Of a DNA stretch of 42,241 nucleotides, positions 1 through 17,641 are shown in pieces. Below the pieces are notes generated by a model that saw only the letters and a program-made list of their open reading frames with translations, ran no database searches and had not been told where the DNA came from. Positions within the stretch are counted from its first letter, which is position 1. Each line of letters opens with the position of its first letter. Source of the DNA: Subtercola vilae (lineage in GTDB: Bacteria; Actinomycetota; Actinomycetes; Actinomycetales; Microbacteriaceae); assembly GCF_004923255.1 (NCBI RefSeq), contig NZ_QYRT01000032.1, positions 1 to 42,241 of the forward strand, in the 5' to 3' direction. The translations under genes and the position numbers were made by a program.

Positions 1-200
1 GTGATGCTGAGGGGGTCGGGGGTGGGGTCGGTCGGCGTGCCCGTGCCGGGCTGTGCCTGCGGCCGGATGCGTACGGCGTTCGTCGGGTCGGCCACGAAGA
101 GCGCCTCGGCGATGTTGCTGACGCTGGTGGTGGCGTCGGCGGTGACGGCGAGGTCGACCTGGCTGCCGCCGGGCCGGGTGAGGGTGATCTTGATGCGCAT
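1..200 (-). CDS. Probable FtsK/SpoIIIE-type ATPase, N-terminal fragment (runs off the window)
   Basis: An open frame starts with ATG at 200 (minus) and runs past base 1, giving 66 readable residues that begin MRIKITLTRPGGSQVDLAV. The start lies 3 nt after the stop of the FHA/HTH gene, so it is the next gene of the same operon. The short beta-rich opening (a strand, an RPGG turn, a second strand, then a helix SVSNIAEALF) resembles the ubiquitin-like/FHA-associated N-terminus that I recall for actinobacterial FtsK/SpoIIIE and EssC-like secretion ATPases. No Walker motif is in the window, so the family call is inference. The last visible stretch is Pro/Thr/Asp-rich, like a linker. It could instead be another small FHA-associated protein. 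Confidence 0.5.
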   Translation of the reverse strand, partial: MRIKITLTRPGGSQVDLAVTADATTSVSNIAEALFVADPTNAVRIRPQAQPGTGTPTDPTPDPLSI

Positions 201-203
201 GGG

Positions 204-983
204 TCAGGGCCTGCCGGTGGGAGGTGCGGATGGGGATGCGGCTGCGGGTGCGGCCTCGTCGAGCAGCGCGAGATCGGCTTTGGTGACGAGGCGGGAGAGA
301 ACGGCGTACTCCACGAGGCGGGCGCGCCGGTTGGTGGCGAGGGCGCCGACTCCGCCGCGGAGGCCGTCGACTCCCGCGCGATTCAGCTTGTCGCAGACGT
401 TGTCGAGTTTGCGATTGAAGCGGCTGAGCACCCAACCGAGGCGCTCGGCGGCGGCCGCAGACGAGGGAATCTCGCTCGTGCCCGACCCGTCGCGCCGCAG
501 CATGGGCTCGGCCAGTGCCACGATGAGCAGGCGCTGAGACGCAGTGAACGCGATGGCGCCGACCGTGGTCGCCCCACTGCCGTCGGGTGTGGGCGACGAG
601 TCGATGAACGGGGGCGCAGAGGTGTGCACACTGAACTCGTAGCTCGTCGGCCCGGCTGTGAAGACCACGGTGGTGAGCCGGAACACGAGCGGAAGCCGCG
701 CGCCCGGAGCCAGCCACGCCTGCACGGTGCCCGACGAATCGGTGACGGTGGCCGACAGCCGCGACCCCACATTGCGGAGCCACCAGAGGCCCTCGCTGAA
801 GTCGATCTGCAGAAAGTGGCGGTGCAGGTACTGGTTGTCGTCGATGTGCAGGTCGGCGTCGCGGCCGATGTTGAAGGCGGTGGCGGGGTCGAGGGCGAAC
901 CATTCGTCGCAGAACTCGATGCTCGCGTCGTTGCCGGCGCTCCCGGAAGGGCCCACCGTCTCTGGGGTGCCGGCGACGCTCAC
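204..983 (-). CDS. FHA-domain protein with C-terminal helix-turn-helix-like region
   Basis: 259 residues from a GTG at 983 that overlaps the kinase stop as GTGA; the open frame extends further upstream, but only inside the kinase gene. Residues about 20-105 look like a divergent FHA domain: a GRD at 40-42, Asn then YLHRHF near 50-57 in place of the usual SRxH, and LRNVGSR where TNG normally lies. Residues about 146-245 are helical (TASQRLLIVALAEPML, then a basic stretch ending NRRARLVEYAVLSRL) and resemble a winged helix-turn-helix. FHA domains bind phosphothreonine peptides, so with the kinase just upstream this is probably a phospho-dependent regulator or adaptor. DNA binding is inference. 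The missing canonical Asn of the FHA pocket makes ligand binding uncertain. Confidence 0.7.
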   Translation of the reverse strand: MSVAGTPETVGPSGSAGNDASIEFCDEWFALDPATAFNIGRDADLHIDDNQYLHRHFLQIDFSEGLWWLRNVGSRLSATVTDSSGTVQAWLAPGARLPLVFRLTTVVFTAGPTSYEFSVHTSAPPFIDSSPTPDGSGATTVGAIAFTASQRLLIVALAEPMLRRDGSGTSEIPSSAAAAERLGWVLSRFNRKLDNVCDKLNRAGVDGLRGGVGALATNRRARLVEYAVLSRLVTKADLALLDEAAPAAASPSAPPTGRP

Positions 984-2734
984 GGTGCGCACGCCGTCAC
1001 GGGGTCTGACGCATGGCCATCGGTGCGGCGGATGCTCACCTCGACACACACCTGCCCCGATGTCGGTGCGGGCACGGTGACCGTGGGGTCGGGTGTCGAG
1101 GCCAGCTTCGGCTCTGCGCCCGGGGTGACGACGCCCCACAGGTAGACGTCTCCGGCTTTGGGAGCCGGGTTCGCCCATGTGAAGACCACCCCACCCGCGC
1201 CCGCGGTGCCGGTGAGACCGGTGGCGGGGGAGACGGTTTCGGCGGGAGCGATGTTCACGGGGGCATCCGGTGCCGTGCTGGCCTGGGCAGCTGGGCTTCC
1301 GTTACCCGCGTTCACGGCGAAGACGATGCCGAGCACGGCGAGTACGACCACGACGGCCGAGGCGCCGATGATGACGGGGAGGGCGCGCCGTCTCGGGGGT
1401 GCGGCCGTGGTTGCGCCGTGCCCGGCGGCGTGCCCGGGGGTGTGGCCGGGGTTCGGAGCGCGGTGCACGGTCTCTTCGACCGCCGGGGCACCGGATGCGG
1501 CGTCGTGGGGTGAACCGAAAGGGAGGCGGGGTGCGGGTGAGAGACCAGGTGAGGTGCCGGTGCCGAAGCCCTGCCCGGATGCGGCAGTGGTTGCGGCGCT
1601 CGCCGCGGCGCCGGAACGCAGCTGAGTGGCGTCGACGGGTGGAACGGCATGGCCAGCAGGTGCCGCTGACCACCCCTGAGCGGGCGCGGGCGGCGCATGC
1701 GAGGGGCTTGGCTGACGGCGGGAGGAGGTGTTGTGGGCCGTCGGGTCGATGGTGACGATGCCGCGAATGCGGGTGTTTCCGTCGTCTTCCTCTTCTGCTG
1801 TCTCGGCGGGCAGGGCGTCGTCGAGTACATCGGCGGGGCTGACCGAGAGGCTCAGCTCGAGCTGCACCTTCTGGAGTGCCCGGGCGAACTCGAGGGCCGA
1901 GGCGAAGCGGTCGGCGGGGCGTTTCGCCATGGCGACACGCAGAATCTGTTCGAGCGATTCGGGAACGTCGGCGCGGCCGGTGGGCTGCAGTGCGGCCGAC
2001 TGGATGCGCGCGATGAGGTCGATTCCCGCATTGGCCCCGCCCGGCACCTCGAAGGGTGTGCGGCCGGCCAGCAGTGTGTAGACGGTCGCGCCGAGCGAGT
2101 AGATGTCGGCGGGTGAACCCGAGGCCGACACGGCACCGAACACCTCGGGTGGCGACCAGGGAATCGACATGCCGACGGTCTCCTGCTCGGCACCGGCACC
2201 CCCGGGCCCGCCACTGCCACCCTGGCCGTCGCCCCCGCCCACGAGTGCCACCGAAATGCCGAAGTCGGTGAGGGCGGGGCGATTGTATTCCGTTGTGAGA
2301 ATATTCGCTGGTTTGATATCGCGGTGCAGAATCCCGGCGCGATGCGAGGTCTCGACGGCGCCGGCGACCTGCACTCCGATGCGCAGAACCTCGGCCACCC
2401 CGATCTTCTCGCGTCGATAGCGGGCGCCGAGGTTCGGGCGCGAGCAGTACTCCATGGCGAGGTAGGGGCGGCCGTCGGCCGAAATGTCGGCCTGGTAGAT
2501 GGTGACGATCGACGGATGCGTCGACAGTTGTGCCATGAGGTTCGCTTCGGCGTCGAAGCTCTCACGAGCACCATCGGTGAGGGTTTCGGGCAGCAGCACC
2601 TTGATGGCGACGCGGCGGCGGGGCATCCGTTGCTCATAGAGAAACACGTCGGCAAAGCCGCCGGAGCCGAGCAGTTCGATGTAGCTGAAGCCCGCAATCT
2701 CGGGCGGCAACGAGGGTGGGCGACGTGAACTCAC
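980..2734 (-). CDS. Membrane Ser/Thr protein kinase with Fn3-like extracellular domain
   Basis: 584 residues. Hanks-type kinase domain at about 15-290: glycine loop GSGGFADV at 23-30, Lys45 in VAIK, catalytic HRD at 137-139 with Lys141 and Asn144, DFG at 157-159, and PPE in place of APE near 195. All catalytic residues are present, so it should be active. The activation segment carries a Gly-rich insertion (about 165-182). A 160-residue Pro/Ala/Ser linker follows, then one transmembrane helix (451-475) and an outer Fn3-like domain (505-584) with Cys563 and Cys582 that could form a disulfide. There are no PASTA repeats, so it is not a classical PknB. GTG start at 2734 overlaps the FHA gene's stop (GTGA). 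It likely phosphorylates the neighbouring FHA proteins; PP2C at 4311-5177 is the natural opponent. Confidence 0.93.
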   Translation of the reverse strand: MSSRRPPSLPPEIAGFSYIELLGSGGFADVFLYEQRMPRRRVAIKVLLPETLTDGARESFDAEANLMAQLSTHPSIVTIYQADISADGRPYLAMEYCSRPNLGARYRREKIGVAEVLRIGVQVAGAVETSHRAGILHRDIKPANILTTEYNRPALTDFGISVALVGGGDGQGGSGGPGGAGAEQETVGMSIPWSPPEVFGAVSASGSPADIYSLGATVYTLLAGRTPFEVPGGANAGIDLIARIQSAALQPTGRADVPESLEQILRVAMAKRPADRFASALEFARALQKVQLELSLSVSPADVLDDALPAETAEEEDDGNTRIRGIVTIDPTAHNTSSRRQPSPSHAPPAPAQGWSAAPAGHAVPPVDATQLRSGAAASAATTAASGQGFGTGTSPGLSPAPRLPFGSPHDAASGAPAVEETVHRAPNPGHTPGHAAGHGATTAAPPRRRALPVIIGASAVVVVLAVLGIVFAVNAGNGSPAAQASTAPDAPVNIAPAETVSPATGLTGTAGAGGVVFTWANPAPKAGDVYLWGVVTPGAEPKLASTPDPTVTVPAPTSGQVCVEVSIRRTDGHASDPVTACAP

Positions 2735-4311
2735 GAGAGGCCCTCAAAGGTGAGGGTGATGCCGTCGCCGATGTCGATGAGGTCGCCGTTCAGCACGAGT
2801 ACAGGTTCACGCGGGGTGAGGCGGGCGGGCGGAGTGCCGTCGCGGTGCAGCACGGAACCGTTCGTCGTCGCAAGGTCGACAGCGAGCACGTGCCGACCCT
2901 CGGTGCGCACCTCGAGGTGGTTGCGCGAGATGTCTTGTTCGGGGCTCGGAACGGTGACGAGCGTCGGCATGCGGTCGGCGTCGACGCGGTTCGCGCGGGG
3001 GCGTCGGCCCACGATGAGGGTTCGGTCGAGGGCGAAGATGTCGCCCGTTGAGAGCACTATGCGTCCGGTGCCGGTATCGGTGCCGGATGCCCGGGGGTCT
3101 GGGCCCGTTGTGCTCGGTTGCTCACCGTCGGTAGCTGCAGTGGCGTCGGACGCGGCGTCACCCGCGGCGCCCAGTCGGCGCAGGGCGTCGAGCTCGCTGA
3201 CGGTCACGGTCATGCCGTCGTGGTCGTCGTCGGTGGAGCCTGTCGGCAGTGCTGCTGCTCTTACTGCTGCTGCTTGTGCTGCGGGTGCTTGTGCTGCGGG
3301 CGAGGGTGCCCGTGCCGGCGAAGGCGGGGCGGGCGTGCGGTTCGGGGTGACCGAGACCGGGGCGGGAGCGCCGACGGCGGCGAAACCGGGCACACGGTCG
3401 ATGAGACCCGTGGCGGGCGGGGCTGTCCACTCCGATGGGGGGCGGTTCGCAGGCGGTTCTCCTACCGCAACGGGTTGCGGTGCGGGTTCGGAGGCTCCGT
3501 CTTCGTCTTCTTCGTCGTCGATGTCGCGAACGGCCGCGGATTCGACCGACTTGACGACGGTGGCACCCCACAGGTGGTCGTACGCCTCGTCGGGAATATC
3601 TGTGCGGGTGTGGCTCAGGTCATCGTCAGGATCCGATGTCTCCTCGATGGCCAGCGCAATTGCTGGCTGAACTCGGGGGGCCGAAGCTGGAGCTGGAGCT
3701 GGAGCTGGAGCAGGTGCAGGTGCAGGTGCAGGTGTGGGTTTAGGTAGGGCGGCGGGCGGATCGCTCACGACGCCAGTGAGGGTGATACCCACCGCGTCGG
3801 TGAGAACGATGCCGTCGGAGATGGCGAACCAGTCACCGGTGCGGTGTGAGGCGGCGGGGTCTGAAGCGGGAGCACCGACCGAGAGTGTGAGGGCGGTGGC
3901 AGAGGAGACGACGCGTTCGCTCCAGGTGGTGATGTCGGCGCCGGAGACATCGAAGGAGCTTGGGGTGCCGCTGGCAGGCTCGGTGGTGCTGACGCTGATG
4001 GTGAGGGCGCCGCGCACGGCGAGCCGAACATCCGGAGACCCGCCTGTATCTGCAGCCCCGCCAGTATCTGCAGCCCCGACGGGAACGGCGGTCGGGCCGA
4101 ACGTGGCGACGGCGAACGGGGGGATGGCAGCGAGGCCGGATCCGAAGGCACCCGAGAGCGATTCGAGCACGGCACCGAAACCGCGGCCGTCGGCCAGAGC
4201 GTGCCACACCTGCTCGAGCACGTCAGGAGAGACGCTGGGGGGCAGAAGGGCGACCCCGTGGCGAGTGACGACGGCGCGCCAAGTGCCGGGGAGGTACCGC
4301 AGATCGGGCAT
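2731..4311 (-). CDS. FHA-domain protein with long Pro/Ala linker
   Basis: 526 residues; ATG at 4311 shares one base with the PP2C stop (TGATG). The first ~190 residues form a beta-rich domain I do not recognise (TWRAVVTRHGVALLPP, then DVRLAVRGALTISVS and GDWFAISDGIVLTD). A low-complexity Pro/Ala/acidic linker (about 190-400) follows. The C-terminal FHA domain is at about 415-526, with GRRPR, SRNH(LEV) and TTNGS, which are the canonical phosphothreonine-binding elements. No signal peptide or membrane helix, so it is cytosolic. The linker holds acidic Thr sites such as SHTRTDIP around Thr235 that could be kinase targets. It probably works as a phospho-reader or scaffold between kinase and phosphatase. 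The role is inferred from context. Confidence 0.85.
   Translation of the reverse strand: MPDLRYLPGTWRAVVTRHGVALLPPSVSPDVLEQVWHALADGRGFGAVLESLSGAFGSGLAAIPPFAVATFGPTAVPVGAADTGGAADTGGSPDVRLAVRGALTISVSTTEPASGTPSSFDVSGADITTWSERVVSSATALTLSVGAPASDPAASHRTGDWFAISDGIVLTDAVGITLTGVVSDPPAALPKPTPAPAPAPAPAPAPAPASAPRVQPAIALAIEETSDPDDDLSHTRTDIPDEAYDHLWGATVVKSVESAAVRDIDDEEDEDGASEPAPQPVAVGEPPANRPPSEWTAPPATGLIDRVPGFAAVGAPAPVSVTPNRTPAPPSPARAPSPAAQAPAAQAAAVRAAALPTGSTDDDHDGMTVTVSELDALRRLGAAGDAASDATAATDGEQPSTTGPDPRASGTDTGTGRIVLSTGDIFALDRTLIVGRRPRANRVDADRMPTLVTVPSPEQDISRNHLEVRTEGRHVLAVDLATTNGSVLHRDGTPPARLTPREPVLVLNGDLIDIGDGITLTFEGLS
3685..3733. repeat. 6-nt tandem repeats coding Pro-Ala run
   Basis: On the plus strand AGCTGG is repeated about four times, followed by about four AGGTGC units. 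On the minus strand these encode the alternating Pro/Ala run in the linker of the FHA protein. This is a coding microsatellite in a disordered linker and is likely to vary in length between strains. Confidence 0.85.
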
Positions 4312-5177
4312 CAGGTGTTCCTTCCGGCGCCGGCTGCCGCCCGCGGGATGGTGTCTTCGTCGCGGGGCTCGTGACCGTCAGACGTGGTGGGGGCGAGCGG
4401 GGGCGGTGGGGCATCCGGAGTCGAGTCGAACGCATCGACGACCACAGCCGTCAGATTGTCGCGGCCGCCGCGCAGCAGGCTCTCGTGAACGAGGCGGGTG
4501 GCCGCGGCCTGTGGGTCGGCTTCGGCAAGCAGAATGCGGGTGACTGCGTCGTCGTCGAGTTCGCCCGAGACGCCGTCGGAGCAGATCATGATGCGGTCGC
4601 CGGGTTCGACGGGCACGAGCCAGTAGTCGGGGCGCGAGTCGCCGCCGCCGCCGAGGGCCCGGGTGATGATGTTGCGGCCCGGATGCACGGCGGCCGCTGC
4701 GCGATCGAGTTCGCCCTCGTCGACGAGCTCTTGAACCACTGAGTGGTCGACGCTGATCTGCTCGAGAACGCCGTCGTTGAGGCGGTAGGTTCGCGAGTCG
4801 CCGAGGTTGAAGACGAGCCAGTAGGCGGCGCCTTCGTTCGACGCCAGCGCGACGCCCGAGACGGTGGTGCCGGCGGTGCGCGGGCCGGTGCTGGCGATGG
4901 CGAGAATGGCGCTTCGCGCGCGGTCGAAGGCGAGGCGGAGTTCGGTGGGGGTCACCGAGGCGCTGCCCGCGAGTGAGGCGAAGGCGTCGACGGCGAGGGC
5001 GCTGGCCACTTCGCCGGCCTGGTGGCCGCCCATGCCGTCGGCGACCAGAAACACGGGAAACTCGGCGAAGAACGCGTCTTCGTTGGTGGCGCGCTGCAGG
5101 CCGACGTCGGTGGCGGCGCCCACTCGGGTTGTGAGCGAGTCGAGGGCGAGCGACTCGGGGGCTCGGGATGCACTCAC
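4311..5177 (-). CDS. PP2C-family Ser/Thr protein phosphatase
   Basis: 288 residues. Metal-binding and catalytic motifs of the PPM/PP2C family appear in order: ATDVGLQRATNEDAFF (Glu33, Asp34), VADGMGGHQAGEVAS (Asp47, Gly48), NLGDSRTYRL, ICSDGVSGELDDDAV and GGRDNLTAVVV. All metal-ligand acidic residues are kept, so it should be active. It is a soluble single-domain enzyme that ends with a Pro-rich tail. The start is the GTG at 5177 overlapping the RDD/FHA stop as GTGA, with a strong Shine-Dalgarno (AGGTGGAGGAG) 6-7 nt before it; the longer open frame upstream lies inside the preceding gene. It most likely dephosphorylates substrates of the kinase in the same operon. Confidence 0.94.
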   Translation of the reverse strand: MSASRAPESLALDSLTTRVGAATDVGLQRATNEDAFFAEFPVFLVADGMGGHQAGEVASALAVDAFASLAGSASVTPTELRLAFDRARSAILAIASTGPRTAGTTVSGVALASNEGAAYWLVFNLGDSRTYRLNDGVLEQISVDHSVVQELVDEGELDRAAAAVHPGRNIITRALGGGGDSRPDYWLVPVEPGDRIMICSDGVSGELDDDAVTRILLAEADPQAAATRLVHESLLRGGRDNLTAVVVDAFDSTPDAPPPPLAPTTSDGHEPRDEDTIPRAAAGAGRNT

Positions 5178-6775
5178 GAGGCCTCCTCCACCTGAAAAGA
5201 TCGCGTGCCGATGCGAACCGTGTCGCCCGGGCGAACGGTGAGCGGTTCGCCCGAGACGAGCGGCAGGTTTCGGCCGCCCTGCACGAGAACGGTTCCGTTG
5301 GTGGAGCCGCGGTCGACGATCCACAGGGTCGGCGCGGTGGCAGAGAACCCGAAGGTGAGGTGCGTCTTCGAGACCGAGGCTGCGTCGCCGGGTACGCGCA
5401 CGATGAGGGGATCGGCGTTGCGGGGGTCTGTGCTGAGGGGATCGGCGCTGCGGGGATCGGCGCTGGGGGTGGCTTCTGGTGTCGAGGGTGCGGATGCTAG
5501 GGCGGCTGGGGCGATCGGGTCGCGACCGAGCACGCCGGGCCGGTCGACGACGAAGAGCTCGCCGCTGTCGAACCGGAATGCGAGGCGGGGGGTGGCCGGC
5601 GTGACAGGGACGGCGGGGAGCCCGGCGGTCGAGGCCGCGGCGACCGCAGCTGGCCGGCGCAGGTCGGCCAGGCGGGTGCTGTCGACGTCGAGGTCGTCGA
5701 AGGCGTCGACCACAGCTCCGAAGCGAGCGTCGCCCGTCGTTTCGGGCGGCACCGGGGTGGAGGCGAAGGCACCGGGGGCGGGCGGTTGGGCGATTTCGTC
5801 GGAACGCGGTGCTGGGGCGAACGCGGCTGCCGGTGGCGGTGGGGCAAAGCCGGGCACGCTCGCGATGAGGGGAGCAGGCGACGGTACCTCTGGCGGCGAG
5901 AAGCTCACGGCCGGTTCGGCTTCGGGGGGCAGGGTACTAGCGGGAGCGGGCACGGGAGCGGGCACGGGCAAGAGGCCGGGTGCGGGGCTGGCGGCCGCAG
6001 GCGCGAAGGCCGACGGGTCGGTGGCGGGCGGCGCGAGCAGCGGGTTGCGGCCGCGGCGCACGTCGATGACGAAGGTGTGGGCGACGCGGTCGTGCCAGCC
6101 GCGGTTGAGTCTCTGGGGATCCCAGAGGGGAGACAGGTAGACGACGAGCTGGCCGATACCGAAGACGAGACTGGCGGCGAAGACGATGATGTCGCGCAGG
6201 AGCATCCGGAGCAGCCCGGGAGTCGTGGGGCGGTCGACGCTGACAACCCGGAGGCCGGCGAGGAGTTTGCCGAAGCTGTAGCCCAGAAAAGCCTGCATGA
6301 AGAGGCTGGCGAGGGGGTAGAGGTAGGCGCTCAGAATGACCAGCACGAAGGGCAGGCCGGTGATGCTGACGCCGCCCGAGACGCCGCCGCTCGCTGCCGT
6401 GCCGCCCGAGGTGCCGCCGCGAAAGCCGCCGCCGACAGCCACGATGATGATGACGAGAAGGGTGATCACCCCGCCGAAGACGCCGTCGAGGGCGAACGCG
6501 AGGATGCGCCAGCCGTAGTTGCCGGCCAGAACGCCCGGCTCGCCGCCCTCGCCGGCAACGTCGGTTGTCGGCCACGACGCACCGGCTGCCCCACCCGCTG
6601 CCACCGCATCCGCAGGCGCGAGTGGGGAGGCCCCGAGCGCGGTCGCCCGCGTGCGCGACGAGACGGGAGTGCCACAGGCGAGGCAGAACTGCGCGTTGGC
6701 GGGCACCGGAGAGCCGCACTGCACGCACGGCTGCGGCCCGGCGGCGGGCGCGACGGGGGGCTGGGCATTCGTCAT
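5174..6775 (-). CDS. Zinc-ribbon / RDD membrane / FHA fusion protein
   Basis: 533 residues. An N-terminal zinc ribbon has two CxxC pairs (Cys17/20 and Cys31/34). An RDD-family membrane region (about 85-245) opens with GWRILAFALDGVF and contains about three to four hydrophobic helices. A Pro/Ala-rich linker (about 265-400) follows, and the C-terminal FHA domain (about 410-533) has GRD, SKTH and STNGT, the full phosphothreonine pocket. The FHA faces the cytosol if both ends are inside. The linker contains an acidic Thr site DVDSTRLADL (Thr367) and a 15-nt repeat. ATG at 6775 overlaps the transglutaminase-like stop (ATGA). It is a membrane-tethered phospho-reader; what passes through or binds the RDD part is unknown. 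Confidence 0.88.
   Translation of the reverse strand: MTNAQPPVAPAAGPQPCVQCGSPVPANAQFCLACGTPVSSRTRATALGASPLAPADAVAAGGAAGASWPTTDVAGEGGEPGVLAGNYGWRILAFALDGVFGGVITLLVIIIVAVGGGFRGGTSGGTAASGGVSGGVSITGLPFVLVILSAYLYPLASLFMQAFLGYSFGKLLAGLRVVSVDRPTTPGLLRMLLRDIIVFAASLVFGIGQLVVYLSPLWDPQRLNRGWHDRVAHTFVIDVRRGRNPLLAPPATDPSAFAPAAASPAPGLLPVPAPVPAPASTLPPEAEPAVSFSPPEVPSPAPLIASVPGFAPPPPAAAFAPAPRSDEIAQPPAPGAFASTPVPPETTGDARFGAVVDAFDDLDVDSTRLADLRRPAAVAAASTAGLPAVPVTPATPRLAFRFDSGELFVVDRPGVLGRDPIAPAALASAPSTPEATPSADPRSADPLSTDPRNADPLIVRVPGDAASVSKTHLTFGFSATAPTLWIVDRGSTNGTVLVQGGRNLPLVSGEPLTVRPGDTVRIGTRSFQVEEAS
5405..5474. repeat. Imperfect 15-nt in-frame repeats
   Basis: On the minus strand this segment encodes a run of pentapeptides DPRSA-DPLST-DPRNA-DPLIV, four imperfect copies of a 15-nt unit just inside the FHA domain of the RDD/FHA protein. 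It is probably a surface loop expanded by slippage. Confidence 0.7.
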
Positions 6776-9090: not shown

Positions 9091-10496
9091 CAGCTGTTCA
9101 CCCGCCGAAGCGCCGCCGGCAGCTCGTCGAGCGCGCCGATGGTGAGCAGCGTGAGGTCGCCGATCATGCGCCGCGACACCGCAGCGCCCGGCCGGCAGCT
9201 CACCGCGATGATGCGCACGCCGAGCGGAATGTACACGGTGGCCGCCTGCAGCTGCGTGGCGGTGACCTGCGCTCCGAACATCAGCACCGCGACCGACGCG
9301 TCGGGTACCTGCTGGCCGGCGACCTTCGCGAGGTGCACGATGGTGTCGCGGCGTTCGGTCTGCTCGAGGCTCGACAGGTCATCCAGAAGCCGGCGACCTG
9401 TTTCGGAGTGCAGAGTGCTGCCCTGAACCATGACCGTGACGTCGCGCTCTTCTTTCAGCGCCTGCAGCCCGAGTGAGCCGCACGACGAGATGGCGAGCTC
9501 GAACTCATCGGCGGTGGCGTAGTCGGCGGCATTGGTCGAGAGGGCGAGTGCGAGGTGCGAGCGACGGGTCTCTTCGAACTGCTTCACCATGAGAACGCCG
9601 GTGCGGGCCGAGGTCTTCCAGTGGATGTTTCGGCGGTCATCGCCCGGCACGTACTCCCGCAGGGCGTGAAACGAGACGTCGTCGCTCGAGAGCACCCGGC
9701 TGGTCTGGCCTTCGAGGTCGCGAATGAAGCCAGCCGAGGTGCCATCGATGCGCACGGTTTGCGGATGCACGAACAACAGTTCTGGCTCGGTCCAGCGAAT
9801 CTCCCGCCGCAGCAGCCCCAGGGGGTCGCCGCGAACCGATCGCACCGGGCCCACGGTGATGACGGCCCGCTTCGCCGTAGGAATGCCGAACAGATCGTCG
9901 TGTTCAGCGCCCGGCACGAGCCGCGGCACCTGGAACGACGCGAACCCGCCGCCCACCGGCAGCTCGACGCGCGACGGCAGCAGCGCCCGCGTCGAAGCAT
10001 TGCCCACCACAATGCTGCCCACCGCCCGCGTGCCCACAACCACACGGTTCGCGGCGAGGTTGAGCGTCACTGAGTACGCCGACCGGCCCACGATGAAGAT
10101 CACCGACAGCACCAGAGCGGCCAGCAGGGCCACGCCCAGCACGGTCAGCTCGAGCCAGCCGAACGCGCGGCCCACCACGAGGGCGACGATCGCAGCACCC
10201 AGTACGGCCCAGCCGAACCCCGACACGACACCGAGCACGCCGCCGACGACGGGTGAGGCGTGCTGCCAGGCTCCGGATGCCCCGGCCCGCACCCTCGGCA
10301 CGGCCACCTTCACCACGGTGAGCCTGCCCACGGCCGCGCCACCGGAGCGTGCCCGTACCGCCAACGCCCCGCGCGCGGCGGCGAACCGTGCGGCGCCCGA
10401 CGCCGCCGCCCCGGTGCGGGCCGTATTCGTGCGCGCCGAAGCTCGATGTGAGCGGGCCGGCGTGGCTCGGTTCCGAGGGGGTCGCGTGTCGGTCAT
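9090..10496 (-). CDS. DUF58 domain membrane protein
   Basis: 468 residues. The N-terminal ~85 residues are Arg/Ala-rich and disordered; two hydrophobic helices lie at about 85-145; the rest is cytosolic or peripheral. The DUF58 hallmark, FHALREYVPGDDRRNIHWK followed by ARTGVLMVKQFEE, sits near residue 285-310, and the following region resembles a von Willebrand A fold. DUF58 proteins are almost always encoded beside MoxR ATPases and are thought to be their clients or partners in envelope processes. The ATG at 10496 lacks a strong Shine-Dalgarno, so the exact start within the Arg-rich segment is uncertain. The gap to moxR is 55 nt. Confidence 0.9.
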   Translation of the reverse strand: MTDTRPPRNRATPARSHRASARTNTARTGAAASGAARFAAARGALAVRARSGGAAVGRLTVVKVAVPRVRAGASGAWQHASPVVGGVLGVVSGFGWAVLGAAIVALVVGRAFGWLELTVLGVALLAALVLSVIFIVGRSAYSVTLNLAANRVVVGTRAVGSIVVGNASTRALLPSRVELPVGGGFASFQVPRLVPGAEHDDLFGIPTAKRAVITVGPVRSVRGDPLGLLRREIRWTEPELLFVHPQTVRIDGTSAGFIRDLEGQTSRVLSSDDVSFHALREYVPGDDRRNIHWKTSARTGVLMVKQFEETRRSHLALALSTNAADYATADEFELAISSCGSLGLQALKEERDVTVMVQGSTLHSETGRRLLDDLSSLEQTERRDTIVHLAKVAGQQVPDASVAVLMFGAQVTATQLQAATVYIPLGVRIIAVSCRPGAAVSRRMIGDLTLLTIGALDELPAALRRVNS

Positions 10497-10551
10497 GAGG
10501 GGCGTCTCGGGTCAGGTTCGGGTGGTCACGATGGGCAGCGGAGCGCGGGTC

Positions 10552-11529
10552 TCAGACGGCGACCGACTGGCGGGCCTGCGGCGCGGCAACATCGGCGAGC
10601 ACGCGGGCGAGCACCTGCTCGGCGGTGGTTCCCGAGAACTCGGCCTCCGGGTCGAGCACGAAGCGGTGCACCCACACGGGAGCCGCCAGCTCTTTGATGT
10701 CGTCGGGCAGCACGAAGTTTCGTCCCTGGGCAGCCGCCCAGACTTTGGCCGCGCGAATGAGGGCCATGGCACCGCGAACGGAGACGCCGACGCGGCTTTC
10801 GGGGGCATCCCGTGTCGCTTCGGCGAGCTGAGCGGTGTACCTCAGCACGGCGCTGTCGACGTGCACGGTGGCGGCGAGGTCGGCCATGTCGGCCACGGCG
10901 GCGGTGGTGATGACGGGGCTGAGCTTCGCCGACGAGTCGCGAATCGAAGCACCCGCCAGAATCAGTTCGGCCGAGGCGAGGTCGGGGTACCCGATGGAGG
11001 TTTTGATCAGAAAGCGGTCGAGCTGGGCCTCGGGCAACCGGTAGGTGCCGGCCTGCTCGATGGGGTTCTGGGTGGCGATGACCAGGAACGGCCGGCCGAC
11101 GTCGTGCGTGACGCCGTCGACGGTGATCTTCGACTCCTCCATGACCTCGAGCAGCGCCGACTGGGTCTTCGGCGACGCGCGGTTGATCTCGTCGGCGAGC
11201 ACGATCGAGGCGAACACCGGGCCCTTGTGAAACTCGAACAGGTGCGAGTTCTGGTCGTAGATGGTGACACCGGTCACGTCGGAGGGCAGCAGGTCGGGGG
11301 TGAACTGGATGCGCTGGTGCGAACCCTGCACGGTGGCCGCGATGGCGCGGGCAAGCGACGTCTTGCCGGTTCCCGGCGCGTCTTCGAGCAGCACGTGGCC
11401 TTCGGCGATCATGGCCATGATCGTGAGACGAATCACGTGCGGCTTGCCCAGCACGGCCTGGCCGACGTTCTGCACGAGACGGTCGAAGGTGCCGGCGAAC
11501 CAGGTCGCCTGCTCGGGGGTCATTGTCAC
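10552..11529 (-). CDS. MoxR-family AAA+ ATPase
   Basis: 325 residues. Walker A is APGTGKTS (Lys56), Walker B is IVLADEIN (Asp113, Glu114), sensor 1 is ATQNP (Asn155), and the MoxR signature INRASPKTQSALLEVMEE is present. It should be an active cytosolic chaperone-like ATPase that remodels or activates partner proteins, typically the adjacent DUF58 and VWA-type proteins; no VWA gene is visible here. GTG at 11529 is chosen because AGAAGAG lies 7 nt before it; an ATG two codons later is the alternative. The operon context suggests it helps assemble or release the giant surface protein encoded 52 nt upstream. That role is inference. Confidence 0.95.
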   Translation of the reverse strand: MTMTPEQATWFAGTFDRLVQNVGQAVLGKPHVIRLTIMAMIAEGHVLLEDAPGTGKTSLARAIAATVQGSHQRIQFTPDLLPSDVTGVTIYDQNSHLFEFHKGPVFASIVLADEINRASPKTQSALLEVMEESKITVDGVTHDVGRPFLVIATQNPIEQAGTYRLPEAQLDRFLIKTSIGYPDLASAELILAGASIRDSSAKLSPVITTAAVADMADLAATVHVDSAVLRYTAQLAEATRDAPESRVGVSVRGAMALIRAAKVWAAAQGRNFVLPDDIKELAAPVWVHRFVLDPEAEFSGTTAEQVLARVLADVAAPQARQSVAV

Positions 11530-11581
11530 AGGGCTGCTCTTCTCTCGGTCAGATGTGGGGGTTCTGGATGCACGTGCCGGG

Positions 11582-14500
11582 TCATCGCGACACCGTCGGT
11601 GTCACGCCGCCACAGTTGATGTAATTCGCCTGAACTTCAAGCTCGTAGCCGGTGCCCTGGCGGTCGTCGGTGTACCAGCCGGGTGTCCTGGTTCCGTCGG
11701 GCGCCGACACCGAGGTGGTCTTGATGCCATCGGAGCGTGAGTTCCAGGTACAGGTCACTGAGCTGCCGTCGAAGTTGTGCACGGTGATCTTGATGTACGT
11801 GCAGTTGACGATTCCCTTGACGTTGCAGGCGCCGCCGGGAGAGATGGTGGCAGTAGGCGTGGGTTTGCTCTCAGACGTCGCCGATGATGAGCTCTCTCCA
11901 CTCACGGCACCGGTGACGTCGACCGTGCGGGCGGTGATGCTGTGAGTGTCGCTGTAGCCGGCTGGAATGGTACGGCTGCCACCGGCTGTGCCCACGTTCT
12001 CCCAGCCGCCCGAGTCGATCTTGATCTCGATGTGGTAGTCGCGGCCGTTGCGGGCGACCGACGACCAGTTGACGGTGACGCTCTGGTTGCCAGGTGAGGC
12101 GCTGGTGCTGGGCTTGTTCGGGGCGCCGTAGGGCGAGACCGAGTTCGAGGCAGTGCTCGCGGCACCGTTGTAGGTCTCGCCGTCGAGCTGGGTGACGGCC
12201 CGAACGCGCACGGTGTAGTCATTGTTGTTCGAGACGCCGCTCGTGATGACCTTGTTGCCGGGCATGCTGTTCCAGCCACCGTTGTTGAGGCTGTACTGGT
12301 AGGCGAGCTCGCTGGCTTTCGCGCCGTTGCCGGCGGCGGGCGAGTACGACACCGTGAGCTGGTTGTCGCCGGCGGTGGCGCTCACGTTGCCGGGTGCACC
12401 GGGGGCCACGAAGGCGCGGCGGGGCGCCGAGGGGCCGGAGGGGTTGCCGGTGCCGGCCTTGTTGGCCGCGGTGACGATGAAGGTGTAGTCGCTCTCTGAG
12501 GTGGCGACTTCGATGGCCTGCGACGTAGCGGTGCCCTCGGGGAGGGTGTTGACCACGGATCCTCCGAGCAGAACCTGCAGCGTGTACGCCGAGACCGCGT
12601 CACCGTTGTTGGCCGGGGCAACCCAGTTCACCTGCAACTGGGCCTTGTCTCCCACGGGCTCGAGACGGGTCGTGGTGGGTGCGGCCGGGGCATCCGGTTT
12701 GCCCGCCGGAATGACGGTGGCCGAGTACGGGCTGAAATCGCTCGGGTCGGGGGCACGGTTCACGGCTTGAATGCGCACCTGGTAGGCCACGCCGTTCTCG
12801 AGACCGTTCCACACCGTGCTGTTGCCGGTGACGCCGGTCTTCTGCAGGGTTCCCGCAGCGGGGGCTGGCGAGATCTCGAGGTTGTACGAGGTGACGGGTG
12901 AGCCCGTGGTGGGCGGGGTGACCCAGTTCACGGTGACGCTCTTGTCGCCGAACACGAGGGTGGGTGCGGCGGGGGCGCTCGGGCGGGCATCCGGTCGGGC
13001 GATGCCGGAGGAGGGCGAAGCGTCTGAGGTGCCGACGGCGTTCGTGGCGGTGACGCTGAACGTGTATTCGACGTTGTTCGTGAGGCCGTCGAGCGTGCAG
13101 GTTGTCGACTGGCACTGCTTGCTGTAGCCCTGCGGGCTCTTCACGGTGTAGCCGGTGATCGAGGAGCCGTTGTCACTCGGCGAAACCCACGAGAGCACGA
13201 CGGTCTTGTCTTGAATCGAGGTGACGCTCGGAGTCGTGGGGGTGTCGGGGCGACCCTGAACGGTGAGGCGAATGCGGCCGTCGGCGACCCGCAGCGGGTC
13301 GTTCGTGGCGTCGGTGATGCGGTAGCGCACCACCATCGTGCCGACGAAGTCGCTCGCGGGCGTCACGTCGACTTGGCTGCCGTTCACGCTGGCGGTGCCG
13401 TTGCCCGTCTCGACGACGGCATCGAGAATCTTCAGCGGAGTCTCGGGGTAGGGGTTGTAGTCGTTGTCGAGCACGCTCACCGAGCGGGTCTTGCCCTGGT
13501 CGGCCTGCGGGATGGTGTCGTCGACCGCCGACGGCATCGGCCGGATGGAGGTGAGTACGTTGACCGTGATCGCGCCGGTGCCGGGCGCACTCTGGCCGTC
13601 GGTCACCTGAATCTGAAAGGTGCTCTGCCCCTTGGCCGCGGAGCCGGAAGCCGACACGCTGAGTGTCTGGCCGTCGATCGAGGCGGTGATGCCGGGGTTC
13701 GGCGAGCCCACGACCGAGTAGCTGAGCTTCTCGAGGTCGCCCTGGTCGGGGTCGCGGGAGAGCGTGCGGAGGTTCAGCTTGTCGGCATCTCCGCCCGGCG
13801 CGACGTTGACACTGCCGCCGAGGAACGTGGGCGAGATGTTCGTGGTCGAGACAACGGTGATGGGAATGACCAGCACGGCCTTCTTGCCGAGCGGGTCGTC
13901 GGGCCCGGTGCCGTCGGTGACCTCGAAGCTCAGCGCATCGGGCCCGTAGTAGCCGGCCTGCGAGGTGTAGGTGAGAGTGGTCTCGTCGGTGACGAGCGAT
14001 GAGCCGTTGCCGTGCGCCACACTCACCTTGCCGGCCTCGGTGATACGTGCGGTCTTGCCGCTGTTCACGAGCACGTACTGCGACAGTGGCACGCTGATGG
14101 TCTCGCCGCTGTTGACCGTGATCGGCTTGACGCCGGGCTTCAGGGTGGGGTGCAGGTCGGCCAGCCCCGGTACGAAGATGAATGCCGAGGCTTTCAGACC
14201 GTCGGGGTCGGTGACCGTGTAGGTCACGATCTGGGCGTCACCGGTGAGGGTGACCGTCACTTGGTTGTCGGCCGTGATGCTGGCGTTGGGGTTGTCTGAA
14301 CTCACGGTGAGGTCGTCGACCGTGCCGTCAGGGTCGTCGTCGTTCTCCCGCACGGGAACCGTGGTTGTCGCCTTGCCGATGACGTCGGCCGCTACCACCA
14401 CGTCGTCGCGGGCGATGGGCGCCACGAGCACCGCGTTCGGGTCGACGGTGACCAGCAGCGGCCCCACGGCGGTGGCGCCGTACTGGTCGACGACGGTGTA

Positions 14501-17500
14501 CTGCACGGTGTACTGGCCGGGGGTCTGCGGGGCCGTCACTTCGACGCGCCCGCGCTTGACCACGGCCGTCACTCCGTCGGGCACCTGCAGGCCGTTGTCG
14601 CGGAGCAGAATCGGGTCACCGTCGGGGTCGGAGTCGTTTGCGAGAACATCCACCGCCACTGTTCGCCCCGGGCGCACGCTCACGGCGTCGGGCACGGCGT
14701 ACGGGCTCTGGTTGGCGCTCGCCGAGGGCACGATACCCACCTGTACGGTGGCGGTCGCTTCGGCGCCGAGTCGGTCGCGCACCACATAGGTGAAGGTGTC
14801 GGTGCCGGTCGACGTGGGGTACGCCTCATACTCGAGCCATGATTCGCCCACGCTCGTGATGCGACCCTTCGCGGGCGCGGTGCCCTGCCCGATGAGCGAC
14901 ACCGAGTCGCCGTCGGGGTCGATTCCGTCGAGCGGAATCGGGATGCGCACGGTGGTGCCCTGCAGTGCGCGCACGGTGACGTCGCGCGGCCGGGGCGGGG
15001 AGTTGGCGCCGGCGTCGTTGCCGATGATCTGAATGGTCACATACCCGGCAGCGCGCTGGCCCTGGCTGTCGACCACCTCGTAGGTCGTGTAGACGGTCTT
15101 CGCCACCGGGCCGGCCTTGAACCGCAGGGTGTCTTGCGCCACGAACATGTCGCCGTCGGCTGGTGCGATGAGCGGCTGCACGAGCGTGGGCGAGAGCGAG
15201 ATGGTGTCGCCGTTCGGGCTGTAGTCGTTGTCGAGCACGTGGATCGTCGCCACGTCTCCCGCGCGCACCGTCACCGTGTCGTTGACCGCGACCGGCGGCA
15301 GCAGTTTCGCGGGCGCCGGAATCGGTATCACGAACACCTCGCCCACCGCCGATTTTGTGCCATTCGTCACCGTGTAGTGAATCGTCGTGGGCGACGTGAT
15401 GCCCGGCGAGTCGGTGATGCGCAGCGTCTCGTGCTCGAGCACCTCGACGGCCACGCCCGAGTCGGCCGGGTTGTCGATCGACTGCACGGCCAGAATGCCG
15501 CCGGCCGGGTCGAAGTCGTTCGCGAGCACATTCACGAGCACGCTGTGGCCCTTGGTGAGCAGGGCGGTGTCTCGCACGGCAATGGGTGGGTCGTCTGCGT
15601 TGACGCTGGCGAGAACATCCACTCGCACCAGGCCCGAAGCCGTCTTGGGGCCGTCGGTGACGAGGTACTGCACGTAGTAGGTGCCCGGGTTCGGGGTGAT
15701 GAAGGTGAAGGTGCCCGTGGTGTAGTCCGGCACCACGGTGGCTCCGGTGACCTCGTTGATCTTCGCGAGACGCAGCTGCGCGCCGCTCGGGCTGAGGTCG
15801 TTGGCGAGCGGCGAGGCGGTGACCTGCTGGTTCGGGCGGGTGATGTAGTGGTCGGCGTTGGTGACGGGGGCGAGGGTTCCGGATGCCCGAACCTCGAAGT
15901 GAATCGTGCCCTCGGTGTCGAGTGTTCCGTCGCTCACAACGACTTTCACGTCTTTGCGGCCCGGGTCAGCGTCGAGCGCTGTGAATGTGATTTGTCCGTC
16001 GGCGCGGAACTGAACCTGGTTCGCGCCGTCGGCGGTGGCCGAGCGCACGAACAGGTCGTCGCCGTCGGGGTCGATCCAGTCGGGCAGCACGTTGTACGAG
16101 ACGGTCGAGTTCTGCTCCACGGGAATGGTGGCGACGCGCTTCTCGACCGGTGCCTCGTTCGTGCCCGGCGCCTTCACCGTGAGCGAGACGGTTGCCGTGG
16201 CCTTCCCGCCCCGCCCGTCGTCGACGCTGTACGAGAAAGTTCCCGTGCCCGTCGCGTCGGCCGGCACGGCGATCTGCAGGGCTGCGCCGCCGAGAATACT
16301 CTGCACTGTGCCGAGCGGGGGTTCGGCGCCGTTCAGGGTGGCCGTGAGCACGTCGCCGTCGGGGTCGGAGTCATTGTCGAGCACGGGCAGCACCGTGGTG
16401 CGGCCCGCCCGAACGCCGAACTTGTCGTCGACGGCAATGGGCGGACTGTTCTGATCGGTGCGGTTCGGCAGAATCTGCTGAAGCTCTTCTTCTGTGGTGT
16501 TGTCTTCTTCGTTGGTCTGGGTCTGGTCGGGTGGGGGCACCACGTCGTCCCAGTTCTCGACCTTCTTCATGTTCTGGTTCACGAGCCATACGGCGCCGCT
16601 CGTGAGGTCGTTGATCACCACGACGTCACGGTTGACCCGAAACACGAGGTCGGCGTTGTCGGGCAGGCCGTCGATGGTGCTCGACACATCGTTGGCGGTG
16701 CCGGCGCAGTCGCGTACATACGTCGAGGCGCCCGCCCAGGCGCCGTAAGCGCAACCGCTGAGAAACACGGGTGGGGCCGGCTTGCCGGGTTTGCCCGACG
16801 AGGTGCTGGTCGCCGTGCTGCCGTCGAGGGGCTGGCTGATCAGCTGGGTGGTGGTGGCGATGAGGGCCGACGAGGAATCCGGGCCGTTCTGCTGAAGGAT
16901 GCCGCCCTTCGAGTCGGCGACGCTCACCTGCTTGCCGCCCGGGAGGTAGAGCACGCCATTGACGCTGTCGAACACCACCGCGCGGGTGCCCACGGTGGCG
17001 AGCGAGAGCTGTGCATCATCCGGAACCGTGCCGAGCGCAGCCGTCACAGGGTCGCCCGCGGTGCCCTGGTCGTCGACCGGGATGCTCACCAGCTGCTTGT
17101 CGGCCAGCGAGAGGCCGTGAATCGTGCCGGTGTCATCGACCGTGGCCGAGGCTCCGGCGCCGAGCTTGTAGAGAGGAGTGTCGGGGTTGGCCGTGAAGTT
17201 CGCGACCGCGGCGGCGGTACTCGAGAACAGCAGCCCGGTCGAGGCATCGAGCACTGAAACGGTGTTGGCGCCCAGCGAGACCTCTGCCTGGGCCGGGATG
17301 GCGACCGGGTTGCCCACCGAGACGGTGGCCGGGTCGACCACACTGAGGGTCGACGACGACGGGTCGACGGCGATGACGGTCTCGCCGTTCTGCAGAATGT
17401 CGAAGGTGCCGCTGGTCATGCGCAGGCCCCCGTCGAGCACCTGCGAGGGGTAGTTGAGGTGGCCGAGCAGCAGGCCGCTGGGCTTGGTGACCCACACGCC

Positions 17501-17641
17501 ACCATCGTTGAGTTGCACGTTCGCGGTGGTGATGCCCTGGTAGAAGAGGGCCATGGTCGTGACGGCGAGCGAAACCACCGAAACGGTCGCCACAGATGCG
17601 ACCGTCGCCTTTCGGCGACGCATGGCCTCGAAGAGCCTCAC
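11582..17641 (-). CDS. Giant membrane-anchored protein with tandem Ig-like and Fn3 domains
   Basis: 2019 residues. An N-terminal helix (about 13-36) after a basic start acts as an uncleaved signal anchor. Residues 40-370 form a beta-rich, propeller-like region with Cys297 and Cys312. From about 398 to 1460 there are about eleven Ig-like repeats of the type PPxAVxDxxxVRxGxxxxxxVLxNDxDPDGD, some divergent. From about 1464 to 1925 there are about five Fn3 domains (for example SVTVNWVTPPTTGSPVTSY). A C-terminal cap (about 1927-2019) contains four Cys (two spaced CNVKGIVNC, then VTCTW and INCGG). There is no LPXTG or C-terminal helix, so attachment is through the N-terminus with the long rod outside. 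GTG at 17641 is preceded by GGGGAT with 8 nt spacing. It is the first gene of the operon. Adhesin or wall-spanning scaffold is the likely role; the ligand is unknown. Confidence 0.9.
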   Translation of the reverse strand: MRLFEAMRRRKATVASVATVSVVSLAVTTMALFYQGITTANVQLNDGGVWVTKPSGLLLGHLNYPSQVLDGGLRMTSGTFDILQNGETVIAVDPSSSTLSVVDPATVSVGNPVAIPAQAEVSLGANTVSVLDASTGLLFSSTAAAVANFTANPDTPLYKLGAGASATVDDTGTIHGLSLADKQLVSIPVDDQGTAGDPVTAALGTVPDDAQLSLATVGTRAVVFDSVNGVLYLPGGKQVSVADSKGGILQQNGPDSSSALIATTTQLISQPLDGSTATSTSSGKPGKPAPPVFLSGCAYGAWAGASTYVRDCAGTANDVSSTIDGLPDNADLVFRVNRDVVVINDLTSGAVWLVNQNMKKVENWDDVVPPPDQTQTNEEDNTTEEELQQILPNRTDQNSPPIAVDDKFGVRAGRTTVLPVLDNDSDPDGDVLTATLNGAEPPLGTVQSILGGAALQIAVPADATGTGTFSYSVDDGRGGKATATVSLTVKAPGTNEAPVEKRVATIPVEQNSTVSYNVLPDWIDPDGDDLFVRSATADGANQVQFRADGQITFTALDADPGRKDVKVVVSDGTLDTEGTIHFEVRASGTLAPVTNADHYITRPNQQVTASPLANDLSPSGAQLRLAKINEVTGATVVPDYTTGTFTFITPNPGTYYVQYLVTDGPKTASGLVRVDVLASVNADDPPIAVRDTALLTKGHSVLVNVLANDFDPAGGILAVQSIDNPADSGVAVEVLEHETLRITDSPGITSPTTIHYTVTNGTKSAVGEVFVIPIPAPAKLLPPVAVNDTVTVRAGDVATIHVLDNDYSPNGDTISLSPTLVQPLIAPADGDMFVAQDTLRFKAGPVAKTVYTTYEVVDSQGQRAAGYVTIQIIGNDAGANSPPRPRDVTVRALQGTTVRIPIPLDGIDPDGDSVSLIGQGTAPAKGRITSVGESWLEYEAYPTSTGTDTFTYVVRDRLGAEATATVQVGIVPSASANQSPYAVPDAVSVRPGRTVAVDVLANDSDPDGDPILLRDNGLQVPDGVTAVVKRGRVEVTAPQTPGQYTVQYTVVDQYGATAVGPLLVTVDPNAVLVAPIARDDVVVAADVIGKATTTVPVRENDDDPDGTVDDLTVSSDNPNASITADNQVTVTLTGDAQIVTYTVTDPDGLKASAFIFVPGLADLHPTLKPGVKPITVNSGETISVPLSQYVLVNSGKTARITEAGKVSVAHGNGSSLVTDETTLTYTSQAGYYGPDALSFEVTDGTGPDDPLGKKAVLVIPITVVSTTNISPTFLGGSVNVAPGGDADKLNLRTLSRDPDQGDLEKLSYSVVGSPNPGITASIDGQTLSVSASGSAAKGQSTFQIQVTDGQSAPGTGAITVNVLTSIRPMPSAVDDTIPQADQGKTRSVSVLDNDYNPYPETPLKILDAVVETGNGTASVNGSQVDVTPASDFVGTMVVRYRITDATNDPLRVADGRIRLTVQGRPDTPTTPSVTSIQDKTVVLSWVSPSDNGSSITGYTVKSPQGYSKQCQSTTCTLDGLTNNVEYTFSVTATNAVGTSDASPSSGIARPDARPSAPAAPTLVFGDKSVTVNWVTPPTTGSPVTSYNLEISPAPAAGTLQKTGVTGNSTVWNGLENGVAYQVRIQAVNRAPDPSDFSPYSATVIPAGKPDAPAAPTTTRLEPVGDKAQLQVNWVAPANNGDAVSAYTLQVLLGGSVVNTLPEGTATSQAIEVATSESDYTFIVTAANKAGTGNPSGPSAPRRAFVAPGAPGNVSATAGDNQLTVSYSPAAGNGAKASELAYQYSLNNGGWNSMPGNKVITSGVSNNNDYTVRVRAVTQLDGETYNGAASTASNSVSPYGAPNKPSTSASPGNQSVTVNWSSVARNGRDYHIEIKIDSGGWENVGTAGGSRTIPAGYSDTHSITARTVDVTGAVSGESSSSATSESKPTPTATISPGGACNVKGIVNCTYIKITVHNFDGSSVTCTWNSRSDGIKTTSVSAPDGTRTPGWYTDDRQGTGYELEVQANYINCGGVTPTVSR

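What the first reader, a model, noticed from the sequence alone, without database searches (positions are those of the whole stretch)
1..17641. Candidate undescribed cell-surface system: giant Ig/Fn3 rod plus MoxR-DUF58-transglutaminase-fold set plus a kinase/PP2C/triple-FHA circuit
Seen: ten genes in one direction with 1-4 nt overlaps at most junctions, encoding a 2019-residue anchored rod, an AAA+ ATPase, DUF58, a Cys-less transglutaminase-fold membrane protein, three FHA readers, one kinase, one phosphatase and probably the start of an FtsK/SpoIIIE ATPase. Known: MoxR-DUF58-transglutaminase sets and kinase-PP2C-FHA sets are each common. Inference: their fusion into one operon led by the rod suggests a phospho-controlled machine that assembles, exports or senses through the surface rod, possibly allied to a type VII-like ATPase.
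Basis: partly seen in the sequence, partly recalled or inferred. Interest (0 to 1): 0.8.

Follow-up and report, generated by a model that had tools for sequence, protein, structure and literature searches.

The report
Surface-rod operon fused to type VII secretion
A soil bacterium carries, in one run of ten genes, the parts for a giant surface rod, a phosphorylation switch and the start of a type VII protein-secretion motor; relatives show that these parts travel together, which suggests an overlooked version of that machine.

Summary
Confirmed: ten same-strand genes run from 17641 to base 1; seven of nine junctions lie between -4 and +3 nt. The genus is Subtercola.

Of 55 named loci with 9 kb on both sides, all have MoxR, TG, both FHA genes, kinase and the small FHA-fold gene on DUF58's strand; 53 have the rod; 53 have the kinase downstream of TG.

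The last gene starts an EssC/EccC-type ATPase. Contig C79 holds most of such a gene plus two WXG100 genes. Module and this EssC together: 25 of 60 relatives; EssC only 0; module only 15; neither 20.

The rod module is not new: it is homologous to the bifidobacterial PFNA operon. New here: its wider spread, its fusion to a type VII system without EccB/EccD and apart from T7SSd-type loci, a transglutaminase fold without catalytic Cys in 126 of 126 informative rows, and a kinase acidic-TR motif.

Only 4 of 23 module-bearing Bifidobacteriaceae have a full-length EssC, so the module can stand alone. Function is untested.

The parts
11582..17641 (-). Giant rod, 2019 aa: N-terminal TM (14-32), beta-propeller, 11 Big_9 Ig stretches, fn3 domains
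10552..11529 (-). MoxR AAA+ ATPase, Walker A/B intact
9090..10496 (-). DUF58 protein, two hydrophobic segments
6772..9090 (-). TgpA-like membrane protein with transglutaminase fold; Asp at the catalytic Cys position (probable pseudo-enzyme)
5174..6775 (-). Zn-ribbon + RDD membrane domain + FHA reader; linker T367 (codon 5677-5675) in an acidic-TR motif
4311..5177 (-). PP2C phosphatase (start by position: GTG overlapping the previous stop by 4 nt)
2731..4311 (-). FHA protein with the SR.H and NG residues used for pThr binding
980..2734 (-). Ser/Thr kinase, HRD and DFG intact, one TM (454-472); acidic-TR motif at T321 (codon 1774-1772)
204..983 (-). Small FHA-fold protein with a helical C-terminal part (no Pfam hit)
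1..200 (-). Start (about 66 codons) of the EssC/EccC-type ATPase gene, cut by the contig end
17642..17869 (.). 228-nt divergent intergenic region before a + strand MBL-fold gene (start 17870; name by eye); likely promoter region by position only, since the scan found no sigma-70-like site

Best explanation
The locus encodes a type VII secretion system (T7SS) of a distinct Actinomycetota lineage, in which a PFNA-type surface-rod module (rod, MoxR, DUF58, pseudo-transglutaminase, kinase, PP2C, FHA proteins) is joined to the EssC motor and WXG100 genes. Shown: gene content, shared strand and order across genera, co-occurrence with EssC, intact kinase, phosphatase and FHA residues, loss of the transglutaminase Cys. 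Inferred: the kinase phosphorylates Thr in acidic-TR motifs (its own juxtamembrane T321 and, in some relatives, the RDD-FHA linker); FHA domains, including the one near the EssC N-terminus, dock there and gate assembly or activity; PP2C resets it; MoxR works with DUF58 and the Cys-less TG membrane protein to fold or install the rod; the propeller-Ig-Fn3 rod crosses the wall as scaffold or contact sensor for secretion of the WXG100 proteins.
For: 55 of 55 long named loci hold MoxR, TG, both FHA genes, kinase and small FHA gene on DUF58's strand, 53 the rod, 53 the kinase downstream of TG, 47 the EssC start; unnamed relatives agree. EssC/DUF58: both 25, EssC only 0, DUF58 only 15, neither 20 of 60; in the genus 6 with both, 6 with neither; within 17 kb in 16 of the 25, in several arrangements (L085, L086, L087). 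EssC of G001 has an FHA domain and FtsK domains and matches solved EccC and YukB. WXG100-fusion relatives in 15 of 60 genomes, including all 12 type-A ones. EccB and EccD not found in any of the 12. Signalling residues intact. Kinase TR motif in 67 of 72, shuffles at most 7. TG Cys absent in 126 of 126 rows.
Against: The window's EssC is cut by a contig end; about 0.5 kb lies between it and C79, with no overlap (size estimated). 19 of 23 Bifidobacteriaceae with the module lack a full-length EssC frame. Six genomes have module and EssC more than 390 kb apart and two have them on different contigs. In G041 and G059 the WXG100-like hits lie on other contigs than EssC. Two Sinomonas loci have the operon but no detectable rod. 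G038 has the small FHA gene but no DUF58 match. The TR pattern was written after looking. No secretion, phosphorylation or expression data.
Confidence: 0.6

Rival explanations
1. The module is a self-standing, phospho-controlled system that builds a surface adhesin or sensor rod, as PFNA is proposed to be; EssC and WXG100 form a second system that shares regulation or is only co-inherited. Rod and secretion are not one machine.
For: Module without this EssC in 15 of 60 relatives and in 19 of 23 Bifidobacteriaceae that have it; type-B loci place the kinase upstream of the rod, several without a full EssC in view.
Against: No genome with this EssC type lacks the module (0 of 25); EssC is linked to it in several arrangements; the 12 type-A genomes show no EccB or EccD, leaving the module as the obvious source of envelope parts.
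Confidence: 0.28
2. It is T7SSd (Garrett et al. 2024): kinase, Ig rod TsdI, FHA-bearing TsdC, WXG100, with extra genes.
For: Same kinds of part: kinase, large Ig-domain protein, EssC with N-terminal FHA, WXG100.
Against: Five TsdI-like proteins of Bifidobacteriaceae show no profile similarity to the rod (hhalign probability 0.3%); their consensus ends in a TM-like stretch (by eye) while this rod is anchored N-terminally; type-A EssC falls outside the clade of those five loci; the T7SSd paper's main text holds MoxR, DUF58 and transglutaminase 0 times.
Confidence: 0.06
3. It is a host-immune sensor, as proposed for PFNA FN3 binding TNF-alpha.
For: Homology to PFNA; TNF-alpha binding by a B. longum FN3 fragment reported in passages.
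Against: The module is widespread in genera such as Subtercola, Arthrobacter and Promicromonospora, which I know mainly as environmental (recalled).
Confidence: 0.03
4. It is a MoxR-vWA-beta-propeller conflict system.
For: MoxR matches bpMoxR PF20030 at 43.9 bits, over its cut-off of 27; the rod starts with a propeller.
Against: AAA_3 scores 209.9 bits; in that system the propeller is fused to the vWA component (passages), here it is on a membrane-anchored rod and the neighbour is DUF58.
Confidence: 0.02

Closest known systems
PFNA operon of Bifidobacterium (pkb2, fn3, aaa-atp, duf58, tgm; in some species prpC, a hypothetical gene, fha)
   Same: Homologous rod, MoxR, DUF58, TG, kinase, PP2C and FHA genes; HMMs built from type-A loci hit the corresponding genes of Bifidobacteriaceae strongly
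   Different: Here the kinase stands after PP2C and FHA; a small FHA-fold gene, an RDD-FHA gene, EssC and WXG100 genes are added; FtsK occurs 0 times in the PFNA review and WXG100 0 times
Mycobacterial moxR operon (MoxR, DUF58, vWA)
   Same: A 2025 review notes that its organisation resembles PFNA (PMC12067865, passages), so resemblance outside bifidobacteria has been remarked
   Different: Those passages name no rod, kinase or EssC in it
T7SSd (TsdA, C, D, H, I)
   Same: Ser/Thr kinase, large Ig-domain surface protein, FtsK-type ATPase with N-terminal FHA, WXG100
   Different: Rod unrelated to the TsdI-like proteins tested; MoxR, DUF58, TG and PP2C added; separate EssC clade
T7SSa / ESX
   Same: EccC-like ATPase and WXG100
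   Different: No EccB or EccD match in any of the 12 type-A genomes
T7SSb (EssC-EssB)
   Same: EssC with N-terminal FHA beside a kinase-fold membrane protein
   Different: Kinase residues intact here, while EssB is a pseudokinase; no EssA, EssB or EsaA family hit among the nine operon proteins scanned; no whole-genome search run

Membership tests
PFNA operon | Five core genes (kinase, FN3 rod, MoxR, DUF58, TG) linked and in one direction | tested here: met
PFNA operon | Fixed order with pkb2 first | tested here: not met
   Kinase is eighth here; type-B loci and Bifidobacteriaceae have it before the rod
PFNA operon | Transglutaminase-like enzyme with catalytic Cys (as annotated in PFNA papers) | tested here: not met
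   No Cys in 126 of 126 rows with letters; the 12 Bifidobacteriaceae rows printed have Ser in 11 and Glu in 1, so PFNA itself does not meet it
T7SS in general | EccC/EssC-type ATPase with several FtsK/SpoIIIE domains | tested here: met
   G001 EssC; in this strain in two pieces, window and C79
T7SS in general | WXG100 protein encoded alongside | tested here: met
   C79: 88 aa and 382 aa proteins; Pfam E 1.5e-5 and 1.5e-3, both under the curated cut-off
T7SS in general | Secretion of the WXG100 protein | not testable with these tools
   needs experiment
T7SSa | EccB and EccD present | tested here: not met
   0 of 12 type-A genomes; 9 and 11 of 60 relatives match
T7SSd | TsdI: Ig rod with C-terminal TM helix, homologous | tested here: not met
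   against five TsdI-like proteins of Bifidobacteriaceae, not against Olsenella TsdI
T7SSd | TsdC with N-terminal FHA and TsdD kinase | tested here: met
T7SSd | TsdH: short single-TM protein | not tested
   none stood out among the ten genes; no search run
T7SSd | EssC within the TsdC clade | tested here: not met
   named TsdC sequences were not at hand
T7SSb | EssA, EssB, EsaA, EsaB | not tested
   not searched genome-wide; no such hit among the nine operon proteins

The most novel reading that the evidence does not exclude
An additional T7SS subtype of Actinomycetota, not among T7SSa-j, in which a PFNA-type module supplies the envelope-spanning part (propeller-Ig-Fn3 rod, many-TM pseudo-transglutaminase, DUF58, MoxR installer) and a true kinase speaks to the EssC FHA domain through a conserved phospho-threonine motif. 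The bifidobacterial 'immune-sensing' PFNA operon would then be a relic or stand-alone version of this machine.
Probability: 0.42. Interest if true: 0.82.

Novelty: new variant of a known kind. Interest (0 to 1): 0.66.

Why it matters
It would join two bodies of work that show no link in what I saw: PFNA (bifidobacterial host communication; 0 mentions of FtsK) and T7SS subtypes (0 mentions of PFNA in the subtype paper). It gives a T7SS of many Actinomycetales a defined gene set without EccB/EccD but with a phosphorylation circuit, offers one concrete Thr to mutate, and indicates that the PFNA 'transglutaminase' very probably does not act as one and that the cluster is not unique to bifidobacteria.

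Tried and rejected
T7SSa and T7SSd membership, the MoxR-vWA-propeller system, and strict dependence of the module on EssC were tested and rejected. A TR motif shared by all FHA linkers was rejected: clear in the kinase (67 of 72), present in 20 of 73 RDD-FHA linkers, absent from the second FHA protein (1 of 71), PP2C (3 of 70) and TG (2 of 80). A ubiquitin-like N-terminus of EssC looked plausible by eye, but Pfam gave nothing for three such pieces, so it is not claimed. The pdb_via library was not available. One search used an arbitrary Pfam family to obtain the genome handle and says nothing biological. One search was a badly aimed paper search. The class-wide search with the rod's propeller hit 35 of 296 genomes; it is a lower bound, since it missed G059, whose rod is seen in L049. 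Outside the order it found full-size frames (2031-2496 aa) in 8 genomes of one genus (f45 g104) and 420-791 aa frames in others; neither was followed. No structure of EssC, TG or DUF58 was predicted (both jobs went to the propeller and the small FHA protein).
Full report
Anatomy. The window is contig C30 of a 103-contig genome and begins at the contig start. Ten genes on the minus strand run from 17641 to base 1. Seven of nine junctions lie between -4 and +3 nt; the two around MoxR are 52 and 55 nt. Upstream lies a 228-nt divergent gap to a + strand gene starting at 17870, MBL-fold by eye. The consensus scan found no promoter-like site, and four terminator-like sites against a mean of 5.5 in shuffles. 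The rod has one N-terminal TM segment, then a beta-propeller (AlphaFold pLDDT 89.4; best Foldseek hits a surface-layer YVTN propeller, NirF, a lyase and BamB), then Big_9 domains (11 stretches) and fn3 domains (3 stretches). The 259-aa protein 983-204 has no Pfam hit, but its model has an FHA fold (pLDDT 81.6, pTM 0.48; FHA hits from E 1e-4). It lacks the usual Ser of the S..H motif (my reading), so phosphopeptide binding by it is doubtful.

Who carries it. Of the 80 loci, 55 have at least 9 kb on both sides. In these, on DUF58's strand: MoxR, TG, both FHA proteins, kinase and the small FHA protein in 55 of 55; rod in 53; PP2C in 53; the EssC start in 47. The kinase is downstream of TG in 53. 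The two without a rod are Sinomonas. L196 and L202 (Pseudactinotalea, Actinotalea) have the kinase upstream of the rod and no PP2C or EssC in view. The other six without EssC carry the small FHA gene and may simply end too early. The 25 shorter loci were left out of this count. All 80 favour the window's near relatives.

The other order. Among unnamed relatives, type-B loci run kinase-(small FHA)-rod-MoxR-DUF58-TG, in several with PP2C and FHA upstream of the kinase; three end in an FHA gene and a shorter FtsK-like ATPase of 905-1052 aa (L054, L082, L102). Family f4 is Bifidobacteriaceae by a recalled genus-specific primer: 8 of 9 f4 genomes tested match, the window genome does not. L094 shows the published PFNA order on one strand, kinase-rod-MoxR-DUF58-TG-PP2C-x-FHA. 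L117-L120, L126 and L127 show the same neighbours, but with the FHA gene on the other strand and the kinase cut off in L118 and L126; L093, L121 and L122 show kinase to TG only. Rod frames are about 1800-2200 aa. A loose WS-motif pattern occurs in 9 of 11 such rods, but a related pattern also in a type-A rod, so this is weak support. No named B. longum locus was compared. Passages of the PFNA review call the cluster and FN3 unique to bifidobacteria. That does not hold, and a 2025 review already notes a resemblance of the mycobacterial moxR operon.

Link to type VII secretion. C79 (5471 bp) encodes 1256 residues of an EssC-type ATPase open at the contig end, then an 88-aa WXG100 protein and a 382-aa WXG100 fusion. 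It does not overlap the window; from the alignment I estimate about 175 residues missing between them. In several relatives the order runs on from rod to EssC on one contig. WXG100-like hits lie on EssC's contig, just beyond it, in 10 of the 12 type-A genomes (7 kb beyond in G001, after a DUF4062-TPR gene); in G041 and G059 they lie on other contigs. EssC of G001 has an FHA domain (43.8 bits) and FtsK domains, and matches T. curvata EccC, B. subtilis YukB and mycobacterial EccC5. Of 60 relatives, 25 have both this EssC type and the module DUF58 (E <= 1e-30), none EssC only, 15 DUF58 only, 20 neither (Fisher p 8e-7; the genomes are related, so p is only a guide, and the EssC cut-off was set after seeing the hits). 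Within the genus it is 6 with both and 6 with neither. In 16 of the 25 the two lie within 17 kb; this genome has them on two contigs; two more have them on different contigs; six have them more than 390 kb apart. The small FHA protein is found in 24 of 60 genomes; 20 of these are among the 25 (my count), and one, G038, has no DUF58 match. The WXG100 fusion has relatives in 15 of 60, some only over the WXG part, including all 12 type-A genomes.

Which T7SS. EccB and EccD match in 9 and 11 of 60 relatives (9 over the cut-off for each) but in none of the 12 type-A genomes, so this is not T7SSa. Garrett et al. 2024 (PMC11217815; abstract, sections 7 and 9 and passages read; supplements not seen) describe T7SSd in Actinomycetota with a kinase, an Ig rod TsdI, TsdC, TsdH and a WXG100 protein; MoxR, DUF58 and transglutaminase occur 0 times. 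Loci of that kind in Bifidobacteriaceae (L210, L211, L213, L214: kinase, 1325-1800 aa rod, EssC, FHA; L212 without a kinase in view) have rods with no profile similarity to this one, and their EssC form a separate clade (support 1.0). Ten type-A EssC (G003's and G005's were not in the tree) form a clade with support 1.0, inside a larger clade (0.999) holding the module-linked EssC of G043, G058 and G045 and several unlinked ones. G015 and G027 carry a different EssC close to the module. One EssC that I had labelled T7SSd without seeing its neighbours (G067) fell elsewhere. FastTree support only; no named T7SSb-j ATPases were included.

Working parts. Across the pooled loci (all types, window included, some genomes twice) the residues needed for signalling are kept: kinase HRD-Asp, Asn and DFG in 112 of 112 rows with letters, PP2C DG in 99 of 99, RDD-FHA S..H in 96 of 96, second FHA SR.H and NG in 88 of 88, MoxR Walker A Lys and Walker B DE in 123 of 123. 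The transglutaminase-fold protein never has Cys at the catalytic position: D 96, S 11, A 10, E 7, Q 2 of 126; of 12 Bifidobacteriaceae rows printed, 11 have Ser and L128 has Glu. The position was assigned from the G-x-C-x-x-[FY]-A pattern of active relatives, which I recalled. So the protein called TGM in PFNA papers is very probably a pseudo-enzyme. After the kinase domain, 67 of 72 named loci have an acidic-TR[LMIV] motif (shuffled mean 2.6, maximum 7 of 72); 20 of 73 RDD-FHA linkers have one (maximum 5); the second FHA protein does not (1 of 71) (pattern chosen). The five bifidobacterial kinases looked at lack it; of three unnamed type-B kinases two have it, and the two named type-B loci lack it. 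This fits a phospho-threonine docking site for FHA domains in the type-A system, not in PFNA as a whole.

Mechanism and limits. The most economical reading is a T7SS whose envelope part comes from the rod module and whose activity is set by the kinase/PP2C/FHA circuit; the T7SSd paper raises a similar phospho-control for TsdC. Against it: of 23 Bifidobacteriaceae with the module's DUF58, only 4 show an EssC frame of 1300 aa or more (my count), so the rod module has a life of its own; and the Sinomonas loci keep the rest without the rod. No paper joining the two was found in the listings of searches. The library is open-licence only and two listings were partial (15 of 29, 10 of 109), so absence from print is not established.

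Noticed in passing
L205, L209 (Sinomonas atrocyanea): Operon from MoxR to the EssC start but no detectable rod gene; a natural test of whether the rod is needed.
   Followed up: partly
L054, L082, L102: Type-B loci end in a shorter FtsK-like ATPase (905-1052 aa), perhaps another secretion-like variant.
   Followed up: partly
L066:6254-7930: DUF4062-TPR gene right after EssC in one Subtercola genome, before the WXG100 genes.
   Followed up: partly
G097 and G107 (Bifidobacteriaceae): Both a PFNA-type DUF58 gene and a T7SSd-type EssC locus, about 30 kb apart.
   Followed up: partly
L208, L199: Actinobacterial-looking contigs filed under Vibrio cholerae 35D and Sporosarcina beigongshangi (G+C 71% and 67%): probable contamination in public assemblies.
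   Followed up: partly
L157 and other Arthrobacter-group loci; G351:C1:1138134 and 1144363: Two rod hits in a row in front of MoxR; possible duplicated rods.
   Followed up: no
L095 (G055): Module with the kinase and an FHA gene on the opposite strand, and no MoxR hit.
   Followed up: no
f45 g104 genomes (G161, G193, G207, G251, G261, G290, G299, G396): Full-size rod-propeller frames in one genus outside the order.
   Followed up: no
window 983-1312: The kinase's outer C-terminal part looks Fn3-like by eye; not tested.
   Followed up: no
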